From assembly GCF_009695635.1 (NCBI RefSeq), contig NZ_VUNN01000011.1, positions 1 through 64,000 on the forward strand: a stretch of 64,000 nt of DNA, written 5' to 3'. Positions within the stretch are counted from its first letter, which is position 1. The number at the start of each line of letters is the position of its first letter. Of this stretch, positions 20,175 to 52,586 are shown piece after piece. The DNA comes from Bullifex porci (GTDB lineage Bacteria > Spirochaetota > Spirochaetia > Sphaerochaetales > Sphaerochaetaceae). A program made the position numbers and the translations under genes. The notes beneath the pieces were generated by a model. That model ran no database searches. It saw nothing but the letters and a program-made list of their open reading frames with translations, and was not told the origin of the DNA.

Positions 20175-20264
20175 GTGGACGAAAGCCCTTTACCTAATGA
20201 ATTAAATGATTCATCAGACGATCCTCACAGTAGAAGGATAAAAAATTTATATTTGCTTCTTTGA
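20175..20264 (+). CDS. Candidate 29-residue leader peptide upstream of CNNM gene
   Basis: A GTG at 20175 with AGGA at 20165-20168 (6-base spacing) opens a 29-residue frame ending TGA at 20262-20264. The first part is acidic and proline-bearing (DESPLPNEL, SSDDP), followed by a basic patch and leucines (RRIKNLYLLL). Acidic/proline-rich leader peptides such as MgtL destabilise translating ribosomes when Mg2+ is low. The last codons (CTT CTT TGA) form the strand that pairs with the SD of the CNNM gene, which is the arrangement expected for translational attenuation. It is not in frame with the CNNM gene. Existence of the peptide is inference. Confidence 0.45.
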   Translation: MDESPLPNELNDSSDDPHSRRIKNLYLLL

Positions 20265-20319: not shown

Positions 20320-21666
20320 ATGGTCTCTGTGCCCAAACAATTATTATTTCAAGCATTATTAATAGCATGTAACGCATTCTTCGCATCGATGGAAATTGCT
20401 GTTATCTCATTAAATACTACTAAGCTTAGAAAGCTTGCTGATGAAGGAGATGAAAAAGCAAATAAGCTTTTAAAGTTTGCAGAAAACCCAGCTGGCTTTT
20501 TATCAACGATTCAAGTTGGTATTTCTCTATCAGGCTTTTTAGGTGCTGCATTTGCTGCAGACTCACTATCTGAGCCTTTAGTCGATTGGTTCCTATCTCT
20601 CGGTATCAACCTAAGCTATAGCTTTTTAAATAGCCTATCTGTCATCTTTATTACACTCATTCTTACATTTGTAACAATAGTTTTTGGAGAACTTATTCCA
20701 AAAAGAATTGCTCAGCAAAAATCCTATGAGGTTGCTAAAGCTTGCTGTGGTGTAATAAGTGTAATGGCAATTCTATTTAAACCTATTATTGTATTAATTA
20801 GTGGCACAACTAACCTATTCTTAAAAATGCTTCGCTTAAAAACAGAAGCTGAGGACGAAAGTGTCTCTGAGGATGATATTAGAATGATGGTTGATGTAGG
20901 TGGTCAATCGGGTTCAATTGAAGAGGATGAAAAGGAGATGATCCAAAATATCTTTGAATTCAATGACATTGCCATTTCTGAAATCATGACTAGAGTTAGT
21001 GATGTTAATGCTATAAATATTGAAGATAGTAAGGAAGATATTTTAAAGCTTATTAAAGAAACAGGTAACTCTCGTTTCCCTGTTTATAGCGAGGATATTA
21101 ACAACATAATTGGTGTATTAAACTCTAGAGAATTCTTAATAAATCTAAATGATAATAGTGACAAGAGTATTAAGGATATGCTTCGCAAGCCTTATTTTGT
21201 CCCAGAAACAATTAAAGCTGACCAGCTCTTTTCAGATATGCAAAAGAATAAAATTCATATCTCAATTGTTATCGATGAATATGGTGAAACAAGAGGTATT
21301 GTTACTCTTGAGGATCTATTAGAGGAAATCGTTGGTAATATATATGATGAATATGATAAAGCTGAATTACCTGAGATTGAGAAGCTTGATGATAATAAAT
21401 GGCGTGTTCAAGGAACTCTTTCAATCGATGATTTAAATGATGAGCTTGGAATTTCAATCACAGATGATAGAGATTATGACACAGTTGGTGGTATGATTTT
21501 CTCCTGCCTCCACACTATTCCAGAGGATGGAAAGCAATTTAACGTCTCAGTTAATGGTCTTGATATCACAGTTACTCGTGTTGAGGATAAGAGAATTATC
21601 GAAGCGATAGTAAAAAAGCAAGAAGTCCCTCACGATAATGAAAATGATGAGTCACTCACCAACTAA
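20320..21666 (+). CDS. CNNM/CorC-family membrane protein (hemolysin C-like)
   Basis: The 448-residue protein has an N-terminal CNNM (DUF21) membrane domain with three or four hydrophobic segments (LLFQALLIACNAFFASMEIA, SLSVIFITLILTFVTIVFGE with PKRIA), a CBS pair at roughly residues 205-330 (ISEIMTRVSDVNAI, ISIVIDEYGETRGIVTLEDL) and a C-terminal CorC_HlyC domain (DDRDYDTVGGMIFSCL). Family members transport or export Mg2+ and bind ATP in the CBS module; older databases call them hemolysins. The ATG at 20320 lies 15 bases after the GGAG, a long spacing, and in-frame TAA at 20305 rules out a longer start. The gene sits behind a structured leader and overlaps the convergent tetR-type gene by 15 bases. 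Confidence 0.9.
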   Translation: MVSVPKQLLFQALLIACNAFFASMEIAVISLNTTKLRKLADEGDEKANKLLKFAENPAGFLSTIQVGISLSGFLGAAFAADSLSEPLVDWFLSLGINLSYSFLNSLSVIFITLILTFVTIVFGELIPKRIAQQKSYEVAKACCGVISVMAILFKPIIVLISGTTNLFLKMLRLKTEAEDESVSEDDIRMMVDVGGQSGSIEEDEKEMIQNIFEFNDIAISEIMTRVSDVNAINIEDSKEDILKLIKETGNSRFPVYSEDINNIIGVLNSREFLINLNDNSDKSIKDMLRKPYFVPETIKADQLFSDMQKNKIHISIVIDEYGETRGIVTLEDLLEEIVGNIYDEYDKAELPEIEKLDDNKWRVQGTLSIDDLNDELGISITDDRDYDTVGGMIFSCLHTIPEDGKQFNVSVNGLDITVTRVEDKRIIEAIVKKQEVPHDNENDESLTN

Positions 21667-24916: not shown

Positions 24917-25041
24917 TTTATCAACCTCGAATAGGATATTTATTTTTTACTAAAAAATGCTCCATTTATACAATATGGTGAGGTGATTTTTCTTTATATT
25001 GGCTTGAAAAGAATTAATATAATAGCTTTAATACAGTGGGT

Positions 25042-26373
25042 ATGCAAAAAACTAATATCATGCAAAGCGAGACAATCCCTCGCCTTTTATTCAAAATGTC
25101 ATTTCCAATGATGCTTAGTATGCTAATCCAGGCATTATATAATGTAGTAGATAGTATCTTTGTTGCAATGGTATCAGAAACTGCTCTTACAGCAGTATCA
25201 CTAGCCTTTCCACTTCAAAACCTACTTATCTCAGCAGCCGTAGGAACAGGTGTAGGTATTAACAGTCTATTATCAAGAAGACTTGGAGAGGGAAAGCACG
25301 AGGAAGCAAATCATGTTGCTTCAACCTCACTCTTCTTAGCTTTTGCCATGTGGGTTCTATTCGTTCTTATTGGTGTCTTTTTTACTAAGCCATTTCTAGC
25401 TCTATTCACAAAGGATACAGAGTTATTAAAGCTATCAACATCATATTCAAGAATATGTTTAATAGTTTCATTTGGTTGTATTTTCTCAATTACTATAGAA
25501 AAGCTAATTCAAGCAACTGGTAATTCTGTACAGCCAATGACAATGCAGCTAACTGGAGCAATAACAAACATTATCCTTGACCCTGTATTTATTTTTGTCT
25601 TTGGGCTAGGAGTAAATGGTGCTGCAATAGCAACTGTAATTGGACAAATAGCTTCAATGCTACTTGCAATAATTTTCTTTAAGAAAAACGAGTACATCTC
25701 AATAAAATTTAAAGACATAAAGCCAAATGCAAGAATTATTAAGGATATATTCCAGGTTGGACTTCCTTCAATAATTATGAATAGTATTGGTACAGTAATG
25801 GTATCATTAATTAATAAGATATTAATACTATTCTCAGCTACCGCAGTCTCTGTATTTGGTGTTTACTTCAAGCTTCAATCCTTTGTATTTATGCCAGTAT
25901 TTGGTCTAAACAATGGTGTTATACCTATCTTAGGCTTTAACTATGGAGCAAGAAATAAAAAGAGAATGCTTGATACAATGAAGCTCGGTTTAGTAGTTGC
26001 ACTATTAATAATGATAACAGGTACAATATGCTTTCAATTATTTGCGAAGGAGCTACTCTCACTATTTAGTGCCACAGAGGAGATGTATAGAATTGGTATT
26101 CCAGCACTACGAACTATCAGTCTATGCTTTATACCTGCATCTATTTCAATTATTTTGATTGCATCATTCCAAGCAACAGGCTTTGGCCTTGCATCTATGA
26201 TGGTATCAATTATTAGACAGCTTGTTGTACTTTGTCCTTGTGCGCTATTGCTATCAAGGCTTATAGGAATAAATGGAGTATGGTATAGCTTTGCTATTGC
26301 CGAAATTTTTGGCTTACTATTCTCTGTTATATTTTTTATTCACGTCTATAATAAAAAAATAAAAAATCTTTAA
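25042..26373 (+). CDS. MATE family efflux transporter (copy 1)
   Basis: The 443-residue protein has twelve hydrophobic segments in the MATE two-bundle arrangement, beginning 'PRLLFKMSFPMMLSMLIQALYNVVDSIF' (here shortened to its key part LLFKMSFPMM). Repeats of the family pattern are visible at LITATG-like 'LIQATGNSVQPM' and 'ASFQATGFGLASM'. MATE proteins export cationic drugs or metabolites using Na+ or H+. The ATG at 25042 is preferred over a GTG at 25036. There is no SD; TATAAT at 25018-25023 puts the transcription start within about 15 bases, so the mRNA may be nearly leaderless. A solute-binding protein gene follows 12 bases later. Confidence 0.9.
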   Translation: MQKTNIMQSETIPRLLFKMSFPMMLSMLIQALYNVVDSIFVAMVSETALTAVSLAFPLQNLLISAAVGTGVGINSLLSRRLGEGKHEEANHVASTSLFLAFAMWVLFVLIGVFFTKPFLALFTKDTELLKLSTSYSRICLIVSFGCIFSITIEKLIQATGNSVQPMTMQLTGAITNIILDPVFIFVFGLGVNGAAIATVIGQIASMLLAIIFFKKNEYISIKFKDIKPNARIIKDIFQVGLPSIIMNSIGTVMVSLINKILILFSATAVSVFGVYFKLQSFVFMPVFGLNNGVIPILGFNYGARNKKRMLDTMKLGLVVALLIMITGTICFQLFAKELLSLFSATEEMYRIGIPALRTISLCFIPASISIILIASFQATGFGLASMMVSIIRQLVVLCPCALLLSRLIGINGVWYSFAIAEIFGLLFSVIFFIHVYNKKIKNL

Positions 26374-31003: not shown

Positions 31004-32368
31004 CTATAGGACATCTTCATCTTTTTTTCCACCAAGCTCCTTAATAAGTCTAATAAAAAATATCAATGATGAAATAAATGTGAGGATATCAGAGAGTGGT
31101 TGAGCTATCTCAACACCTAAAACACCAATTTTTGATGGTAAAATTAAGATAAATGGTAGGAAATAAATTCCTTGTCTGCATAAAGCAAGATATGTTGCTT
31201 GAGCAATATGACCTGTAGCCTGAAGAGACATATTAGTAGCTACGTTAATTCCACATAAAATTAATGTAAGGCACTGAAACCTTAAGGCTTTAGTGCCGAT
31301 TATAATTACATCTAAATCTTCCTTTCTAAAGGATGAAACTAGTGGACGAGCAAAGATAAAGCAAATTATTGCTAGTGTTGATATCACGACAGTTCCAAAG
31401 AATGCAGTAAATAGAGTTGCTCTCTTAACTCTAGAGTACTTCTTTGCACCGTAGTTAAAGCCCGCAACTGGCTGGAAGCCCTGCCCTAACCCCAATAAAG
31501 CAGAAAACAAAAAGAATGTAATTCTACCTGAAATACTCATTGCCGCAACTGCTGCATCGCCAAAAGCCGCAGCTTGAATATTAAGTGTCATAGTAGCAAT
31601 AGATGCTAAGCCCTGTCTTGATAAGCTAGGTAGACCAGTTTTAAGAATATTTAAATAGGTTTTAGCACTTTTTGAGATATATTTAACACTAAGAGTTAAA
31701 TTACTCTTTTTCTTTATAAACATCGTTAGGAGTATTATAAAGCTTATTAGCTGGCTTAAGGCTGTAGCCATCGCAGCTCCTCTAGTTCCAAGCTTAAAAT
31801 AGAATATAAATATCGGGTCTAAAAAGATATTTAAAATACCACCAGTTGTAATACCAAGCATAGCATAGAAGGCTTTACCCTCATTTCTTAATAAATTGTT
31901 TAAAACGAAGGAGGTACAAATAACTGGACAGGCAATAAGGATAAATGAGCCGTAATCTAAAGCATAAGGTAGAATAGTTGGTGTTGAACCGAGGAATACC
32001 ATTAGCTCTTTACAAAAGATTAATCCCAATATTGCAATTAATGATGAGATAATAATAACTAAAAAAACAGCTGAGGATGCTATTTGGTTTGCTTCATCCC
32101 TTTTTCCTGCGCCTAATCTTCTTGAGCTTAAGATTCCACTTCCCATTCCTATAGTAAAGCCTATAGCCTGCATGATAGCCATAAGAGAGAAAACAATACC
32201 AACTGCAGCTGATGCACTAGTACCTAGCTGAGAAACGAAGAAGGTATCAGCCATATTATAAATTGAAGAAACCAGCATAGAAATTACTGTAGGTACAGCT
32301 AAGCGCATGATTAATGGCTCGACAGGTGCTTGAGTCATCCTTATATAGTGTTTATCGTTATTAACCAT
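31004..32368 (-). CDS. MATE family efflux transporter (copy 2)
   Basis: The 454-residue protein has twelve hydrophobic segments. Its opening 'MTQAPVEPLIMRLAVPTVIS' followed by 'SIYNMADTFFVSQLGT' and the middle 'GLGQGFQPVAGFNYGAKKYSRV' are typical of the MATE subfamily with a conserved PVAGFNYGA segment (DinF/NorM-like relatives). It is upstream of, and probably co-transcribed with, the aminotransferase gene (8-base gap), which could point to an amino-acid-related export substrate, but that is speculation. Confidence 0.92.
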   Translation of the reverse strand: MVNNDKHYIRMTQAPVEPLIMRLAVPTVISMLVSSIYNMADTFFVSQLGTSASAAVGIVFSLMAIMQAIGFTIGMGSGILSSRRLGAGKRDEANQIASSAVFLVIIISSLIAILGLIFCKELMVFLGSTPTILPYALDYGSFILIACPVICTSFVLNNLLRNEGKAFYAMLGITTGGILNIFLDPIFIFYFKLGTRGAAMATALSQLISFIILLTMFIKKKSNLTLSVKYISKSAKTYLNILKTGLPSLSRQGLASIATMTLNIQAAAFGDAAVAAMSISGRITFFLFSALLGLGQGFQPVAGFNYGAKKYSRVKRATLFTAFFGTVVISTLAIICFIFARPLVSSFRKEDLDVIIIGTKALRFQCLTLILCGINVATNMSLQATGHIAQATYLALCRQGIYFLPFILILPSKIGVLGVEIAQPLSDILTFISSLIFFIRLIKELGGKKDEDVL

Positions 32369-35034: not shown

Positions 35035-35441
35035 GCTATGATGATTTAATTTATATAGATTATAAAGCTAAATTGAAGCACCCTCCTATGGATAGAGCAA
35101 AAAGAGCTGCCCAGTTTTCTCCATTTGCAGCTTTAACTGGTTATGATAAAGCAATTGAAGAGGAAAGCAGAGTAACAGAGGAAAAAAGAATACTCACTAG
35201 TGATGAATTTTCTGAAATAGAGCGAAAGCTTCAAAATGGAATTAATAGAGATGTAGCTATAACATATTTTAAGAAGGATGAAAGTAAATCAGGGGGGACA
35301 TACCTTACAATTAATAGTAAAATTGTTAAGCTTTTAATTGAGAAAAAAAGAGTATTACTTGAGGATGGTACACTATTAAATATTAAAGATATTTTCTCGC
35401 TTGAAATAAAAGGCAATAAAAGCTATGTTGATTATCAATGA
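35031..35441 (+). CDS. YolD-like protein, partner of Y-family polymerase
   Basis: The 136-residue protein has the YolD-like pattern: 'HPPMDRAKRAAQFSPFAALTGY' near residues 17-38 followed by an acidic helix (EEESRVTEEKRILTSDE) and a C-terminal beta segment. YolD proteins resemble UmuD-associated small proteins by context and are thought to regulate the adjacent polymerase. It overlaps the polymerase by 4 bases and the MATE gene by 4, so all are translated from one mRNA. The biochemical role is unknown. Confidence 0.75.
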   Translation: MSYDDLIYIDYKAKLKHPPMDRAKRAAQFSPFAALTGYDKAIEEESRVTEEKRILTSDEFSEIERKLQNGINRDVAITYFKKDESKSGGTYLTINSKIVKLLIEKKRVLLEDGTLLNIKDIFSLEIKGNKSYVDYQ

Positions 35442-36799
35442 AAGGAAGTGGTAGTAAAGCAAAAAGGATGACGGAGGGCTCTATATTTAAATGCCTTCTT
35501 TATTTTGCGCTTCCATTAATGGTTGGAAATTTCTTCCAGCAGCTCTATAACACCGTTGATAGCATCATAGTTGGAAACTTTGTTGGAAAGGAAGCTCTTG
35601 CCGCAATAGGGTCTGTAGACTCAATTATTAATACATATATTGGATTTTTCGTAGGACTCTCTGCGGGTGCTGGTGTTGTAATATCACAATACTATGGCGC
35701 CTCAGATGATGAAAATGTTCATAAAGCAGTTCATACGACTATTGCAATAACTCTAATAATGGCGATAGGCACAACTATAATATCACTCTTTACAACAGAT
35801 ATATTTTTAAGAATATCTAGAGTTCCAAGTGATGTTTGGCTAGAGGCAGAGACATATTTAGGAATATACTTTTTAGGGCTAGTAGGTCTTTTAATTTATA
35901 ATATGGGCTCAGGTATATTAAGAGCAGTAGGAGACTCAAAGCACCCACTATATTTTCTAATATTCTCAGCGCTATCAAATACTGTTTTAGATATTATCTT
36001 TGTTGCAAACCTCCGCTTAGGAGTTGCTGGAGCTGCGTATGCAACTATTATTTCTCAAGCACTATCTGCCCTACTCGTTCTATACACTCTTATAAAAACA
36101 AATGATTGCTACAAAATTAGCTTAAAAAAAATAAGAATATATCCAAAGCTTTTAAAGCAGATTTTTAGAATTGGCTTACCTACAGCACTTCAAATGATGG
36201 TAACAGCATTCTCAAATGTATTTGTTCAAAGCTATATTAATTCCTTTGGCTCTGCTGCTATGGCAGGATACTCCTCATATAATAAGATTGATAAGGTATG
36301 CTTACTACCTCTCCAATCTATTGGCCTTGCAATTACTACCTTTATGGGACAAAACATTGGAGCTGGAAATAGTGAAAGAGCAATAAAGGGAGTAAAGACA
36401 GCTACTAGGATGAATGTAGTAACTGCTATTGTTCTTCTTACCTTCCTATGGGTTGTTGCTCCATACCTAATTTATATCTTTAACCAAGATGAGGAAGTAA
36501 TACACTACGGTACTATCTTCCTTAGGACTATGAGTCCATTCTTTTTATGTGTTGCATATAACCAAATCCATAATGGTGCTCTAAAGGGTGCTGGTAACAC
36601 TAAAATTCCAATGATAATTATGATGAGCTGCTTTATAGTCTTTAGACAGATTTATCTCTTTGTTATTTCAAGAGTTATCAATACACCAATTGCTATAGCA
36701 CTAGGCTACCCTCTAGGTTGGCTACTATGTACTATTATTCTTTCAATTTACTATAAAAAGGTTGATATTACTGCTCATAGTGTTTTATCCCAGAAATAA
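35438..36799 (+). CDS. MATE family efflux transporter (copy 3)
   Basis: The 453-residue protein has twelve hydrophobic segments and MATE hallmarks: 'FALPLMVGNFFQQLYNTVDS', 'GNFVGKEALAAIGSVDSI', 'QNIGAGNSERAIKG' and 'ALKGAGNTKIPM'. The ATG overlaps the YolD-like stop by 4 bases. Its 3' end overlaps the convergent butyrate kinase by 25 bases. Confidence 0.93.
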   Translation: MKGSGSKAKRMTEGSIFKCLLYFALPLMVGNFFQQLYNTVDSIIVGNFVGKEALAAIGSVDSIINTYIGFFVGLSAGAGVVISQYYGASDDENVHKAVHTTIAITLIMAIGTTIISLFTTDIFLRISRVPSDVWLEAETYLGIYFLGLVGLLIYNMGSGILRAVGDSKHPLYFLIFSALSNTVLDIIFVANLRLGVAGAAYATIISQALSALLVLYTLIKTNDCYKISLKKIRIYPKLLKQIFRIGLPTALQMMVTAFSNVFVQSYINSFGSAAMAGYSSYNKIDKVCLLPLQSIGLAITTFMGQNIGAGNSERAIKGVKTATRMNVVTAIVLLTFLWVVAPYLIYIFNQDEEVIHYGTIFLRTMSPFFLCVAYNQIHNGALKGAGNTKIPMIIMMSCFIVFRQIYLFVISRVINTPIAIALGYPLGWLLCTIILSIYYKKVDITAHSVLSQK

Positions 36800-38465: not shown

Positions 38466-38502
38466 ACTCTTTTATTATTGCTCAATTATATCATTTTTGA
38501 AT

Positions 38503-39894
38503 ATGATAGCCACCATGGGAAGTTTTAGAAAAAAATTTTTTGGGAGTAAAGAGTTCTATTTATCTGTATTAGCAATAGCTCTTCCAATAGCAATACAAAA
38601 CTGTTTTACTAATTTTGTTAACCTACTAGATAACGTCATGGTAGGTCAGATGGGTACTCTTGAAATGAGTGGTGTATCGATATCTAACCAGCTTATTTTT
38701 GTGTGTAACCTTTGTATATTTGGAACTGTCTCTGGAGGCGGAATTTTCTGTTCACAGTTCTTTGGAGCAAATGACTGGAATGGTGTTAGAAATGCAATAA
38801 GATTTAAGCTCCTAGTGGGATTTACAATTATTTCTATCTCAATTATTTGCTTCGTATTCTTTGGAGATAAGCTAATTTATCTATTTTTATCTGGTGAAAA
38901 GGATTTACAAAGTGTAGAAAGAACACTTAGCTATGGCTTTGACTATCTAAAGATAATGGCGATAGGAATTCCAGGCTTTTTGCTTTCTCAAATATATGCA
39001 AGTACGCTAAGAGAGGGTGGAGAGACTATGCTCCCAATGAAGGCAGGGATAATAGCTATCTTAACTAATTTAATATTAAACTACCTCCTTATTTTTGGAC
39101 ACTTTGGCTTTCCAAGGCTCGGAGTAAATGGTGCAGCTATAGCAACAGTAATTAGTAGATATGTTGAAGCTATGATTATTATATTTATAGCTCATAAAAG
39201 ATATGAATACTTTAAAGGTCTTTATAAGACTTTAATTATTCCAAGAGCTCTTTTTATAAGGATCTTTAAAGCTGCTATTCCTTTAATGCTCAATGAGACC
39301 TTTTGGTCACTTGCTATGAGTACCTTAGTTCAGTGCTACTCAACAAGAGGTATCAATGCAGTTGCAGGTTATAATATAGCAAATACATTAATACAGGTTG
39401 CCAATAGCTCATTTTTAGCAGTAGGCTCTGCAATTGGAATTATTATTGGTCGATTATTAGGTGCAAATAAGAGTGAAGAAGCTGTAGAGACAGATGTTAA
39501 GCTCATAGTCTTTTCTATAATGGTAGGATTAGGCGCCGGTATTCTTTTAATAATACTATCACCAATATTCCCAATGCTATATAACACAACAGCAGAAGCA
39601 AGACTAATTGCTACTCAATTTTTAATCGTACAGGGATGCTTCTTACCACTCTTTGCACTTAGAAATGCATCATATTTTACACTTCGTTCAGGTGGAAAAA
39701 TATTAATTACTATCTTAACAGACTCACTATTTATGTGGCTTTGTCCTGTACCTATAGCATTTATCCTTAGCCGATATACAGCTATGTCTGTACCACTATT
39801 ATTTATGACTGTACAGATGAGCTACATCTTCAACTGTATTGTTGGTATCGTATTAATTAAGAAAAGAGTTTGGGTTAGAAATATGGTTAGCTAA
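38503..39894 (+). CDS. MATE family efflux transporter (copy 4)
   Basis: The 463-residue protein has twelve hydrophobic segments with MATE hallmarks 'LAIALPIAIQNCFTNFVNLL', 'VMVGQMGTLEMSGVSISNQ', 'GRLLGANKSEEAVETD' and 'YFTLRSGGKILITI'. The start could be 38503 or 38515; neither has an SD. It is more like copy 5 (51147-52502) than like copies 1-3, since both begin with a short basic stretch and 'ALPIA-QN'. It is divergent from the methyltransferase gene with about 40 bases between. Confidence 0.92.
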   Translation: MIATMGSFRKKFFGSKEFYLSVLAIALPIAIQNCFTNFVNLLDNVMVGQMGTLEMSGVSISNQLIFVCNLCIFGTVSGGGIFCSQFFGANDWNGVRNAIRFKLLVGFTIISISIICFVFFGDKLIYLFLSGEKDLQSVERTLSYGFDYLKIMAIGIPGFLLSQIYASTLREGGETMLPMKAGIIAILTNLILNYLLIFGHFGFPRLGVNGAAIATVISRYVEAMIIIFIAHKRYEYFKGLYKTLIIPRALFIRIFKAAIPLMLNETFWSLAMSTLVQCYSTRGINAVAGYNIANTLIQVANSSFLAVGSAIGIIIGRLLGANKSEEAVETDVKLIVFSIMVGLGAGILLIILSPIFPMLYNTTAEARLIATQFLIVQGCFLPLFALRNASYFTLRSGGKILITILTDSLFMWLCPVPIAFILSRYTAMSVPLLFMTVQMSYIFNCIVGIVLIKKRVWVRNMVS

Positions 39895-45806: not shown

Positions 45807-45887
45807 AGAATAAATATAAATTATATCACTATCAATATATTAGTAAAAATAAGTGCTACCATATTTTAATTTATTGCGATATCATAA

Positions 45888-45908
45888 ATGTGTTTAGTCC
45901 AAACACAT
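45888..45908. promoter_or_regulatory. Perfect inverted repeat upstream of mgtE leader
   Basis: ATGTGTTT (45888-45895) and AAACACAT (45901-45908) are perfectly complementary with a 5-base spacer. It lies about 24 bases before the leader ORF, close to where a transcript starting after TATCAT (45880-45885) would begin. It may be an operator or the first hairpin of the leader. Confidence 0.35.
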
Positions 45909-45931
45909 ACTTTTAAAATAAGGAGACAAAG

Positions 45932-46015
45932 ATGGAAGAAGGCAGTAGTCGTAGAAGTGTACAGCCACAAAATGAAGATACTGTTCCTTTATCTAGAACA
46001 GTCTCTTTATTGTGA
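45932..46015 (+). CDS. Candidate 27-residue leader peptide upstream of mgtE
   Basis: An ATG at 45932 preceded by AAGGAG (45920-45925, 6-base spacing) opens a 27-residue frame (MEEGSSRRSVQPQNEDTVPL then SRTVSLL) ending TGA at 46013-46015. Its SD is far better than that of mgtE, and the frame is not continuous with mgtE. Inside the frame ACTGTTC / GAACAGT (45980-45986, 45996-46002) can form a hairpin. This is the second leader ORF in the window ahead of a magnesium-transport family gene. Expression is unproven. Confidence 0.45.
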   Translation: MEEGSSRRSVQPQNEDTVPLSRTVSLL

Positions 46016-46040
46016 TATCACTCTTACATTTTTTCTGCGT

Positions 46041-46065
46041 CATTTTATCTTGAAAAAAGAAAATG
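46041..46065 (+). promoter_or_regulatory. Hairpin covering the mgtE start codon
   Basis: CATTTT (46041-46046) pairs with AAAATG (46060-46065) and CTT (46049-46051) with AAG (46057-46059), giving a 9-bp stem with a 2-base bulge and a 5-base loop. The right arm contains the mgtE ATG and the only SD-like purines. It could hold translation down unless opened. Confidence 0.4.
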
Positions 46066-47463
46066 AACGACAAGGATAAGACATTACAGGTACGCCCTGA
46101 TTATGCAGTTGAGGTTTCTCAATTAATTAAAGGTACTCTTAGTCCAAAGCTAATGAAGGAAAAGCTATTAACATATCATGAAAGTGATATTGCTGATGCT
46201 TTAAAGTATCTAAAGAGCGATGAGCGCTTTAGATTATATTCATTACTTGGACTACAATTACTATCACAGGTTCTCGCTCATACAGATGATAGAAATATCT
46301 ATATTGATGAGCTTCCTTTAAAAAAGCAGGAGGAAATTCTTCACTATTTAGATTCAACACTAGCAATTGAATATCTAAAGGGGCTATCTAAAACGGAAAG
46401 AAATACTCTAATTGATCTCATGGATGAGGAAAGGAAAACTGAATTAAGCTTAATTAACTCATTTGATGAAGATGAAATTGGAAGTAGGATGACTACAAAC
46501 TACATTCAAATTGAAGAGGGTATTTCAATTGAGAAGGCTATGAGCTCACTTATAGCTCAGGCAGCTGAGAACGATAACATCTCAACAATTTATGTTGTTG
46601 ATAGCGATGGATTATTTGAGGGTGCAATTGATTTAACGGATTTAATAATAGCTAGAAAAGGTACTAATCTTGATGAAATCACAGTTACCTCATATCCATA
46701 TGTTTATGCAACAGAGCTAATCGATGATTGTATTGAAAGATTAAAGGACTATAGAGAGGACTCAATTCCTGTATTAAATAGCGATAATAAGCTATGTGGA
46801 GCTCTTACTGGACAGGAGCTTAGTCAATTAATTGATGATGAAATGGGTGATGACTATGCAAAGCTTGCAGGTCTCTCTGCAGAGGAGGAGCTTAATGAGC
46901 CACTTAAGATGAGTATGAAGAAGCGTCTTCCATGGCTTATTATACTGCTTGCATTAGGCCTTGGTGTTTCATCTGTTGTAGGTGCTTTTGAAAGTGTAGT
47001 TGCACAGTTAACAATAATTATTAGCTTCCAGTCTTTAATCTTAGATATGGCAGGTAACGTTGGAACACAATCACTTGCCGTAACAATTAGAGTTCTAATG
47101 GATGAAAAGCTCTCCTTTAAGCAAAAGCTACTTTTGGTACTTAAGGAAATTAAGATAGGCTTTGCAAATGGCTTTTTGTTATCAATTATTTCGCTATTAA
47201 TTATTTTTGCTTACCTATTTCTTTTAAAGGGACAGCCTATTAATTACGCAATTCTTTATGCTTCATGTGCATCTATTTCATTAATTATTGCAATAGTGCT
47301 ATCAAGCTTCACAGGAACTGTAGTTCCACTACTCTTTAAAAAGATAAAGATCGACCCAGCAGTTGCTTCAGGACCACTTATCACAACTATTAATGATTTA
47401 GTAGCGATAGTAACCTACTATGGCCTTGCTTGGGTCCTATTGATTGGAGTTTTCAACCTATAA
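46063..47463 (+). CDS. mgtE: Magnesium transporter MgtE
   Basis: The 466-residue protein has the MgtE layout: an N-terminal alpha-helical domain (residues 20-130, 'LLTYHESDIADALKYL', 'LSKTERNTLIDLM'), a CBS pair (about 140-255, 'MTTNYIQIEEGISIEKAM', 'DDCIERLKDYREDSIPVL') and five membrane segments from about 290 ('RLPWLIILLALGLGVSSVVG', 'GNVGTQSLAVTIR', 'ATYYGLAW'-like 'VAIVTYYGLAWVLL'). MgtE is a Mg2+-gated channel closed by high Mg2+. The start has no good SD and lies in a hairpin behind a leader ORF. The end overlaps the convergent acetyltransferase gene by 6 bases. Confidence 0.95.
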   Translation: MNDKDKTLQVRPDYAVEVSQLIKGTLSPKLMKEKLLTYHESDIADALKYLKSDERFRLYSLLGLQLLSQVLAHTDDRNIYIDELPLKKQEEILHYLDSTLAIEYLKGLSKTERNTLIDLMDEERKTELSLINSFDEDEIGSRMTTNYIQIEEGISIEKAMSSLIAQAAENDNISTIYVVDSDGLFEGAIDLTDLIIARKGTNLDEITVTSYPYVYATELIDDCIERLKDYREDSIPVLNSDNKLCGALTGQELSQLIDDEMGDDYAKLAGLSAEEELNEPLKMSMKKRLPWLIILLALGLGVSSVVGAFESVVAQLTIIISFQSLILDMAGNVGTQSLAVTIRVLMDEKLSFKQKLLLVLKEIKIGFANGFLLSIISLLIIFAYLFLLKGQPINYAILYASCASISLIIAIVLSSFTGTVVPLLFKKIKIDPAVASGPLITTINDLVAIVTYYGLAWVLLIGVFNL

Positions 47464-51146: not shown

Positions 51147-52502
51147 CTAAATCGTCAAATCCTTAACCCACTTATATTTTTTATAGTGGTACATAGTCCA
51201 TGGAATCTTTCCAACCTCATCAAGACAGGTACACCCATATACAATTAATACAGGCCAGGAGAAGACAAAGGTACCTAGTGCTGCTAATGGAATAGCTACC
51301 ATCCACATAGTTACACATAGAGAGTAAAAGTCAAACATAGTGTCTCCACCAGATGCAAACATTCCATTAATAACTACAGAATTAAGTGAGCAGCCAACCA
51401 TATATACAGAAAGCACTATAGCCATTTCTAAGAAGTCTCTAGTAGCCCCTTCTGATAGCTTAACTATTTTTAATGAAGGATAAACTGTTAATAAGGTTAA
51501 TATTGCTGAGATAATGCCACAAATAATAGATATTACAACAAGCTTATCGCCATACTCTCTAGCTCTATCTAGCTTTCCACTACCAAGCTCGTAGCCAATT
51601 AGTATTGCAGTTCCTCCAGCTAAGCCCCTCATAAAGCAGCTAACTAAGCTTCTTACTACAGAAGCTACAGAGTTTGCAGCAGCGGCATCAACGCCCATAT
51701 GTCCCATAAATGCTGAATAGGAGGTAAATCCTATAGTCCATACTAAATATGCGCCCATTAATGGTATTAGCTGTTTTACAAAATCTCTTGATAGTCTTTT
51801 TGAGAAATAGAATAGCTTTGTTAAATCAGGTCTAGTAAAGCTATCCTTTGAGCAAACTATTATAGCTAAAAATAGCTCCACTACCCTCGAAATAACAGTT
51901 GCTAAAGCAGCACCATTTACTCCCATTTTTGGCATTCCGAGTAGCCCAAAAATAAATATCGCATTTAAGATTATATTTAAAATAACAGCTACAGTACTAA
52001 TTTTTGCAACAGCAGCAGTATTCTTTCCAAGCTTAATTAAGGCAATGAGACATTGAGAAAACCCAGTTATTAAATATGAAATAGCTGCAATCTTTAAATA
52101 GCTTACACCGTAAGAAATTAATACATCTTCATTAGTAAATATCTTCATCATTCCTGCTGGTATAAAAAAGCATAAAAAAGAAAATACTAAGCTAACTAAT
52201 ACACAAATTCTAAGTGACATACAAAAAAGCTTATCAACTGTTTTTTTATCGCTCTTACCTGCATATTGTGCACCTAATATCTGAAATGCAGCAATTACAC
52301 CTGTTACTGTAACATTTTGTACAAACTGTATTTGTGACGCTAGAGAAACTGCAGCCATAGCATTTTGCTCTAGTGAACCAAGCATTATTGTATCTGAAGC
52401 AGCAACACAGGCTAGCATAAAGTTCTGAAAGGCAATAGGTAATGCTAAATGAAATAATTTGGAATTAAAGCGTCTATCAGAAAAAAGATTTTTTAAATTC
52501 AT
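51147..52502 (-). CDS. MATE family efflux transporter (copy 5)
   Basis: The protein (451 residues from 52502; an earlier ATG at 52520 is also in frame) has twelve hydrophobic segments with MATE hallmarks 'HLALPIAFQNFMLACVAAS', 'MLGSLEQNAMAAVSLASQIQ' and 'NGMFASGGDTMFDFYSL'. It resembles copy 4. 'MNLKNLFSDRRFNSKLF' at 52502 looks like the family start; neither start has an SD. No partner gene is obvious. Confidence 0.92.
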   Translation of the reverse strand: MNLKNLFSDRRFNSKLFHLALPIAFQNFMLACVAASDTIMLGSLEQNAMAAVSLASQIQFVQNVTVTGVIAAFQILGAQYAGKSDKKTVDKLFCMSLRICVLVSLVFSFLCFFIPAGMMKIFTNEDVLISYGVSYLKIAAISYLITGFSQCLIALIKLGKNTAAVAKISTVAVILNIILNAIFIFGLLGMPKMGVNGAALATVISRVVELFLAIIVCSKDSFTRPDLTKLFYFSKRLSRDFVKQLIPLMGAYLVWTIGFTSYSAFMGHMGVDAAAANSVASVVRSLVSCFMRGLAGGTAILIGYELGSGKLDRAREYGDKLVVISIICGIISAILTLLTVYPSLKIVKLSEGATRDFLEMAIVLSVYMVGCSLNSVVINGMFASGGDTMFDFYSLCVTMWMVAIPLAALGTFVFSWPVLIVYGCTCLDEVGKIPWTMYHYKKYKWVKDLTI

Positions 52503-52586
52503 ATAGCTATAAATAAACATTATCTAATACTTTTGCAACACTAAAAAATTAAGAGGATAAAACTATGCCATCCCCTTAACTATACC

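What the first reader, a model, noticed from the sequence alone, without database searches (positions are those of the whole stretch)
45888..46065. Second leader ORF and start-codon hairpin ahead of mgtE
Seen: an ORF of 27 codons with a strong AAGGAG, an internal hairpin (ACTGTTC/GAACAGT), and a stem covering the mgtE ATG, while mgtE itself lacks a good SD. An 8-bp inverted repeat lies just upstream. Known: mgtE is often under the M-box riboswitch in Firmicutes, but that structure is not recognisable here. Inference: mgtE is also controlled through its leader ORF, making two Mg-transporter genes in one window with the same layout.
Basis: partly seen in the sequence, partly recalled or inferred. 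Interest (0 to 1): 0.6.

Follow-up and report, generated by a model that had tools for sequence, protein, structure and literature searches.

The report
Leader-peptide switch ahead of mgtE
A 27-codon mini-gene in front of a spirochaete magnesium-transporter gene belongs to a conserved family of mini-genes found ahead of unrelated magnesium-transport genes in Clostridia and spirochaetes, and probably lets the ribosome itself report whether magnesium is scarce; this resembles the enterobacterial MgtL system, but I found no description of it for these bacteria.

Summary
The ORF 45932-46015 (MEEGSSRRSVQPQNEDTVPLSRTVSLL) has a consensus SD and is conserved in the two genus-mates carrying this mgtE. 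The mgtE is of Clostridia type (54-65% identity; about 25% to other spirochaete MgtEs), so it probably arrived by transfer. A related leader ORF (MDGSSxSRSTD, MDNCDSHGRS, VTNSDSCGRW) precedes mgtE in 64 of 80 Clostridia-type loci. There the first ~60 nt of the ORF pair with the 5' arm of an intrinsic terminator; the pairing covaries (native -37.2 versus -28.6 kcal/mol with swapped partners, p<=5e-5). The window shows a miniature version: a helix over the leader start, alternative to a terminator-like hairpin ending in T6. No Rfam family matches. Leader ORFs with the same acidic N-terminal recipe precede corA, mgtA-type ATPase and CNNM genes, which points to Mg2+ as the signal. Best explanation: an MgtL-like, translation-controlled attenuator, ON when ribosomes fail on the leader. 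Mg2+ response, direction and ribosome drop-off are inferred. The mgtE start-codon hairpin and the 8-bp repeat are not conserved, and weak SDs are common in this window. New variant of a known kind.

The parts
45932..46015 (+). Leader ORF, 27 codons: MEEGSSRRSVQPQNEDTVPLSRTVSLL*
   Evidence: conserved in L032 (MEEGSSRNSVHHK...) and L003 (MEDSSRSTSDK...), and related to the leaders ahead of mgtE in Clostridia
45919..45925 (+). Shine-Dalgarno of the leader ORF, TAAGGAG
   Evidence: 7-nt match
45917..45947 (+). Helix A, 5' side: leader SD, start codon and codons 2-6 (AATAAGGAGAC ... GGCAGTA); proposed antiterminator arm, which also hides the leader's own SD
   Evidence: (z -4.56; L032 z -3.06; L003 z -1.60)
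45979..46011 (+). Helix A, 3' side: TACTGTTCC ... GTCTCTTTATT, within the leader ORF
45980..46002 (+). Hairpin H1 ACTGTTC/GAACAGT, mutually exclusive with helix A (L032: ATACTGT/ACAGTAT; L003: GACTGCG/TGCGGTC)
45951..45959 (+). Terminator-like stem T, 5' arm GTAGAAGTG (leader codons 7-10)
   Evidence: the minimum-energy fold when the leader start is masked; same stem in L032 (GTAATAGTGTA/TACACTTTTAC)
46019..46034 (+). Stem T, 3' arm CACTCTTAC (46019-46027) and T-tract (T6 at 46029-46034)
46041..46065 (+). Weak stem CATTTT/AAAATG over the mgtE start codon; not conserved in L032
45888..45908 (+). 8-bp inverted repeat ATGTGTTT-agtcc-AAACACAT upstream of the leader; not conserved in L032
46063..47463 (+). 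mgtE, Clostridia-type Mg2+ transporter
   Evidence: TIGR00400, 236.5 bits against cut-off 232.75; PF01769, PF03448, CBS

Best explanation
The region is a translation-controlled attenuator built around a leader peptide, acquired together with a Clostridia-type mgtE. A ribosome that starts on the leader ORF prevents helix A (leader start paired with later leader codons) and lets hairpin H1 plus stem T with its T6 tract form, which stops transcription before mgtE. When ribosomes fail early on the leader, helix A forms and the polymerase reads into mgtE. The failure is proposed to follow from low Mg2+ weakening ribosomes on the acidic N-terminus (Glu2-Glu3 here, Asp2 in most relatives), as in enterobacterial MgtL. 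Shown by computation: the conserved ORF, its link to Mg2+-transport genes, the covarying antiterminator and terminator in Clostridia, and the corresponding mutually exclusive folds in the spirochaetes. Inferred: Mg2+ as the signal, ribosome drop-off as the sensor, and the ON/OFF direction.
For: Leader ORF present in all three spirochaete genomes with this mgtE and in 64 of 80 Clostridia-type loci. Each exact match to a strict leader pattern in 24 + 392 + 394 genomes lies ahead of mgtE (none for the reversed control pattern). In Clostridia the leader's 5' 60 nt pair with the terminator's 5' arm region: native -37.2, swapped -28.6 kcal/mol, 33 non-redundant loci, p<=5e-5; P1 helix native -17.8, swapped -10.9 and 16 two-sided changes against 5.2 shuffled, 0/500; terminator arms also covary. 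Window: helix A z -4.56; masking the leader start leaves stem T + T6 as the minimum-energy fold, in the window and in L032. Mg2+ link: acidic-start leader ORFs also precede corA (27 loci) and Mg2+ P-type ATPase genes (about 12 of 13 loci) in other Clostridia orders, and the CNNM gene in the 15 genomes of the window's genus where it was found. Acidic residue at position 2: MgtE 77%, CorA, MgtA and CNNM 100%, against 16% in other small SD-bearing ORFs and 21% in long ORFs. Precedents: MgtL (PMC11282234), MgtQ Asp2/Glu5 (PMC8092293), CorL (PMC11552253).
Against: No expression data. In the window the T-tract stem is AT-rich with one mismatch and the consensus scan did not call it a terminator on the + strand. 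Helix A and the alternative fold are nearly isoenergetic. Only three spirochaete sequences exist, so covariation there is anecdotal; L003 z is only -1.6. The window leader has two acidic residues at its start and no early proline, a weaker destabilising motif than MgtL's EPDP. A ribosome reaching the leader stop codon (46013-46015) would also cover stem T, so the direction could be reversed. The Clostridia P1/terminator platform is not copied base by base in the window.
Confidence: 0.65

Rival explanations
1. A direct Mg2+-sensing (or other ligand) riboswitch whose aptamer overlaps the small ORF; the ORF is incidental or secondary.
For: Strong RNA-level constraint: covarying long-range helices and nucleotide-level conservation such as AGT/CGA codons. 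The M-box does regulate mgtE in other bacteria (established knowledge; Rfam RF00380 rings in Bacillus subtilis).
Against: No Rfam match. The conserved part is a simple long helix plus a terminator, with no compact junction. The reading frame is kept: 67 of 67 open for 24 codons against 28 and 5 in the other frames, and the CGA-containing motif is in frame in 33 of 34. Partner sequences vary freely while the acidic start and the SD stay. Unrelated leaders ahead of corA, mgtA and CNNM share the peptide start.
Confidence: 0.15
2. A translational switch: the leader controls access to the mgtE start codon through the CATTTT/AAAATG stem, as in Salmonella mgtQ-mgtB.
For: The stem exists in the window; mgtE lies only 47 nt after the leader stop; MgtQ works this way (PMC8092293); the CNNM leader in the same window shows a conserved anti-SD in its last codons.
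Against: The stem is absent from L032, the closest relative. mgtE has no SD to hide, and weak SDs are common in this window (20 of 41 genes). Clostridia relatives have clear intrinsic terminators instead.
Confidence: 0.12
3. Codon-dependent attenuation: the leader senses the decoding of Ser AGU and Arg CGA codons (tRNA supply or modification) rather than the acidic nascent peptide.
For: In leader codons 2-12, Ser is AGY in 93% (AGT 80%) against 32% (8.5%) in the MgtE genes, and Arg is CGA in 61% against 5.7%. AGT is also enriched in MgtA, CorA and CNNM leaders.
Against: At least part of the bias follows from RNA pairing, for example GGCAGT with ACTGC. The link to four Mg2+-transport families gives no reason for serine or arginine sensing. 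The window leader has CGT and AGA, not CGA.
Confidence: 0.08

Closest known systems
MgtL leader peptide of mgtA (E. coli, Salmonella)
   Same: Short ORF ahead of a Mg2+ transporter; acidic residues immediately after the start codon; translation of the ORF coupled to alternative RNA structures that decide transcription into the gene (PMC11282234)
   Different: MgtL (EPDP motif) is Pro-rich and acts through Rho-dependent termination of a P-type ATPase gene; here the gene is mgtE, the peptide is Ser/Gly/Arg-rich, and relatives use intrinsic terminators whose 5' arm pairs with the leader ORF itself
MgtQ small ORF between mgtC and mgtB (Salmonella)
   Same: Asp2 and Glu5 of a tiny ORF lower its translation and raise Mg2+-transporter expression through alternative stems (PMC8092293)
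   Different: MgtQ acts on translation of mgtB by releasing its RBS; 8 residues; no terminator
CorL leader ORF of corA and YoaL of mgpA/yoaE (E. coli, Salmonella)
   Same: Small ORFs controlling Mg2+-transport genes; corL translation is inversely related to corA expression and corA responds to Mg2+ (PMC11552253); YoaL affects MgpA (PMC12421838)
   Different: Enterobacterial, Rho-dependent or overlapping ORFs; no sequence relation shown
M-box (ykoK leader, RF00380) Mg2+ riboswitch
   Same: Sits ahead of mgtE in other bacteria
   Different: Ligand-binding RNA that needs no ORF; absent here
mgtE motif of Thioalkalivibrio (riboswitch candidate SRC-65-1)
   Same: Conserved RNA ahead of mgtE with the gene's start codon in a stem (PMC11109978)
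   Different: Described only in Thioalkalivibrio, as a riboswitch candidate; no leader ORF reported in the passages read

Membership tests
M-box (RF00380) riboswitch | Match to the Rfam covariance model above the gathering score | tested here: not met
   no Rfam match in the window; none in the genome; the control rings in Bacillus subtilis
Conserved Clostridia/spirochaete mgtE leader ORF family (this work) | SD-preceded ORF of about 24-46 codons ahead of mgtE with an acidic/Ser/Gly/Arg-rich N-terminus | tested here: met
   The model R1 finds the window leader at 5.3e-4, the only hit in its genome, but the window leader was in the model's training set. Loci outside that set, L044 and L060, score about 1e-11
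Conserved Clostridia/spirochaete mgtE leader ORF family (this work) | Leader 5' part pairs with the 5' arm of a downstream intrinsic terminator | tested here: inconclusive
   Met in Clostridia. In the window an analogous but not homologous pair of folds exists, with a weak terminator
MgtL-type (intrinsic ribosome destabilisation) Mg2+ leader peptides | Small ORF ahead of a Mg2+-transport gene | tested here: met
MgtL-type (intrinsic ribosome destabilisation) Mg2+ leader peptides | Acidic (and proline) residues within the first codons | tested here: inconclusive
   Glu2 and Glu3 present, no early Pro; family-wide acid at residue 2 in 77% and in residues 2-5 in 98%; the sibling CNNM leader starts VDESPLP
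MgtL-type (intrinsic ribosome destabilisation) Mg2+ leader peptides | Expression of the gene rises when Mg2+ falls, dependent on leader translation | not testable with these tools
   Needs reporters
MgtL-type (intrinsic ribosome destabilisation) Mg2+ leader peptides | Rho-dependent termination in the leader | not tested
   Intrinsic terminators seen in Clostridia suggest a different termination route

The most novel reading that the evidence does not exclude
Clostridia and spirochaetes use a general class of Mg2+-reporting leader peptides, M/V-[D/E]-[G/D/E/A]-x-[P/S]-..., placed ahead of four unrelated Mg2+-transport families (MgtE, CorA, MgtA-type ATPase, CNNM). The sensor is the translating ribosome, and in the mgtE leaders the ORF's own 5' half serves as the antiterminator arm. 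An unexplained AGU-codon bias may be part of the sensing.
Probability: 0.45. Interest if true: 0.8.

Novelty: new variant of a known kind. Interest (0 to 1): 0.66.

Why it matters
If confirmed, Mg2+ sensing through a leader peptide would not be a peculiarity of enterobacteria but a widespread alternative to the M-box in gut Clostridia and spirochaetes, able to move between phyla with its transporter gene. It would tie Mg2+ homeostasis in much of the gut flora to ribosome stability, and gives a ready set of leader sequences to test which early residues or codons make a ribosome fail when Mg2+ is low.

Tried and rejected
M-box and all other Rfam families: no match. Start-codon stem as the conserved control element: absent in L032. 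8-bp inverted repeat: not in L032; left as a possible operator. Missing SD as evidence of control: 20 of 41 window genes have a 3-nt or no SD match. Whole-region RNAalifold on a MAFFT alignment of 24 Clostridia leaders found only the terminator, because the alignment is gappy; swapping partners between species was used instead. A broad R1 search over 299 Bacillota genomes gave mostly weak chance hits inside coding genes, but two weak hits led to corA and mgtA leaders. A strict DNA pattern finds few genomes: specific but insensitive. Literature: no paper on a Clostridia or spirochaete mgtE leader peptide was found in the open-access library; subscription journals are not held, so prior description cannot be excluded.

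Full report
OBSERVATION. The ORF 45932-46015 reads MEEGSSRRSVQPQNEDTVPLSRTVSLL and is preceded by TAAGGAG. The hairpin ACTGTTC/GAACAGT (45980-46002), the CATTTT/AAAATG stem over the mgtE ATG and the 8-bp inverted repeat at 45888-45908 are all present. mgtE itself (46063-47463) is confirmed (TIGR00400, PF01769, PF03448, CBS). No Rfam family matches the window and no M-box occurs in the 2.42-Mb genome. mgtE's poor SD is ordinary here: 15 of 41 window genes have only a 3-nt match and 5 have none.

ORIGIN OF THE GENE. Only 3 of 16 genomes of the genus carry this kind of MgtE: the window's genome, G010 (81% identical) and G003 (55%). Two others carry a distant MgtE at 22-24%. The closest relatives outside the genus are from Oscillospiraceae and Lachnospiraceae at 54-65% identity. 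Other spirochaete MgtEs are about 25% identical. The gene therefore looks transferred from Clostridia, although no tree was built.

THE LEADER IS CONSERVED. In L032 (the 81% relative) the leader reads MEEGSSRNSVHHKVENTVPLSTVSS and in L003 MEDSSRSTSDKVNLCKTAFSSAVL. Upstream of mgtE in 64 of 80 fetched Clostridia-type loci (a few of which are cut off by contig ends) there is an SD-preceded ORF with a related N-terminus: MDGSSGSRSTDRVF, MDNCDSHGRSS, VTNSDSCGRWRQ, MDGSDSHERS and others (assignment of some loci was by eye from the ORF list). A sequence-only model of 30 leaders finds unseen members L044 and L060 at about 1e-11, and in the window's genome it finds only this site (this leader was in the training set). 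A strict DNA pattern found 7 sites in 24 source genomes and, in 786 genomes of two orders, two further sites, L153 and L154; all of them precede mgtE, and the reversed control pattern never matched. The frame is kept: all 67 leaders are open for at least 24 codons, against 28 and 5 in the other frames, and the CGA motif lies in frame in 33 of 34 (the leaders were picked as ORFs, which favours frame 0).

THE CLOSTRIDIA ARCHITECTURE. Between leader and gene lies an intrinsic terminator, for example GCCATTGTC...GACAATGGTATTTTT. The leader's codons 12-18 pair with the segment just before and overlapping the terminator's 5' arm: native duplex mean -17.8 kcal/mol against -10.9 with partners swapped between species, permutation p<=5e-5; the terminator arms covary as well. 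A count on 12 sequences gives 16 two-sided changes against 5.2 in shuffles, 0/500 (one column was lost to a gap). Over 33 non-redundant loci of all types, the first 60 nt of the ORF against the terminator 5'-arm region give -37.2 native against -28.6 swapped, p<=5e-5. Relatedness of the sequences is not fully controlled by swapping. The inference is that the 5' half of the leader ORF is the antiterminator strand, so that ribosomes on the leader decide between antiterminator and terminator.

THE WINDOW. The leader start and SD (45917-45947) pair with later leader codons (45979-46011): z -4.56, 0 of 200 shuffles. The same helix exists in L032 (z -3.06) and L003 (z -1.60) with changed bases on both sides. 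This helix excludes hairpin H1. When the first 36 nt (45914-45949) are masked, as by an initiating ribosome, the minimum-energy fold is a stem GTAGAAGTG/CACTCTTAC enclosing H1 and directly followed by ATTTTTT; L032 gives the equivalent stem GTAATAGTGTA/TACACTTTTAC followed by a T run. The two states are nearly equal in energy. A pattern scan does not call a + strand terminator here, so termination in the window is a prediction.

WHY Mg2+. Two weak hits of the model led to leader ORFs ahead of a CorA gene (L125, MDGSPSPDGSYH) and a Mg2+ P-type ATPase (L133, MDGGGSSKN), identified by Pfam and NCBIfam. In their orders, 27 of 27 corA loci with complete upstream DNA and about 12 of 13 ATPase loci have such a leader (MEGDPGS, MDGDPS, MEADPS, MDGAPSSDYH; MDGGGSS, MDDGGNS, MDTGSST). 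The CNNM/CorC gene of the window (20320-21666) has one too, seen in the 15 genomes of the genus in which the gene was found (VDESPLPNEL, VDEGPGN..DPYSSR). Acid at residue 2 is found in 77% (MgtE) to 100% (CorA, MgtA, CNNM) of non-redundant leaders, against 16% of other small SD-bearing ORFs and 21% of long ORFs (the non-MgtE leaders were partly recognised by their acidic start, which inflates those figures). This matches the recipe of MgtL (EPDP motif; PMC11282234) and MgtQ (Asp2, Glu5; PMC8092293), where acidic residues near the start make ribosomes fail, and agrees with CorL and YoaL controlling Mg2+ genes in enterobacteria (PMC11552253, PMC12421838).

WHAT REMAINS OPEN. Ser codons in the leaders are AGY in 93% against 32% in the MgtE genes, and Arg codons CGA in 61% against 5.7%. 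AGT is also enriched in the other leader families. RNA pairing explains part of this but perhaps not all. The direction of control, the signal and drop-off as opposed to stalling are inferred. The literature search covered open-access papers only.

VERDICT. A genuine conserved leader ORF with a translation-linked attenuator, working like MgtL but not shown to be a member of that family; a new variant of a known kind.

Noticed in passing
window 20175-20264 (leader) and 20320-21666 (CNNM/CorC gene): GTG-start leader ORF VDESPLPNELNDSSDDPHSRRIKNLYLLL, conserved across the genus; its last codons and stop (CTTCTTTGATAAA; ATGCTCCTCTGA in relatives) are complementary to the gene's SD (TTTATCAAAGGAG; AAGGAGCAT) in 12 of 12 genomes checked, suggesting a translational switch that turns the gene on when the leader is fully translated.
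   Followed up: partly
L168-L196 (corA loci) and L155-L167 (Mg2+ P-type ATPase loci): Acidic-start leader ORFs ahead of corA (MEGDPGS, MDGAPSSDYH, MDGDPS) and mgtA-type genes (MDGGGSS) in other Clostridia orders, close in style to MgtL.
   Followed up: partly
leaders of 67 mgtE loci and of the corA, mgtA and CNNM loci: Strong bias for Ser codon AGT in all four leader families and for Arg codon CGA in the mgtE leaders, not seen in the downstream genes; only partly explained by RNA pairing.
   Followed up: partly
window 45870-45884 and 46006-46020: Near-perfect 15-nt direct repeat TTTATTGYGATATCA flanking the leader ORF; meaning unknown.
   Followed up: no
L041, L059, L062, L071: Oscillospiraceae mgtE loci with a short upstream region and no recognisable leader ORF, unlike their relatives.
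   Followed up: no
window 25036-26373, 31004-32368, 35438-36799, 38497-39894, 51147-52520: Five ORFs whose N-termini look like MATE-type efflux transporters within 27 kb (judged from the sequences; no family search was run).
   Followed up: no
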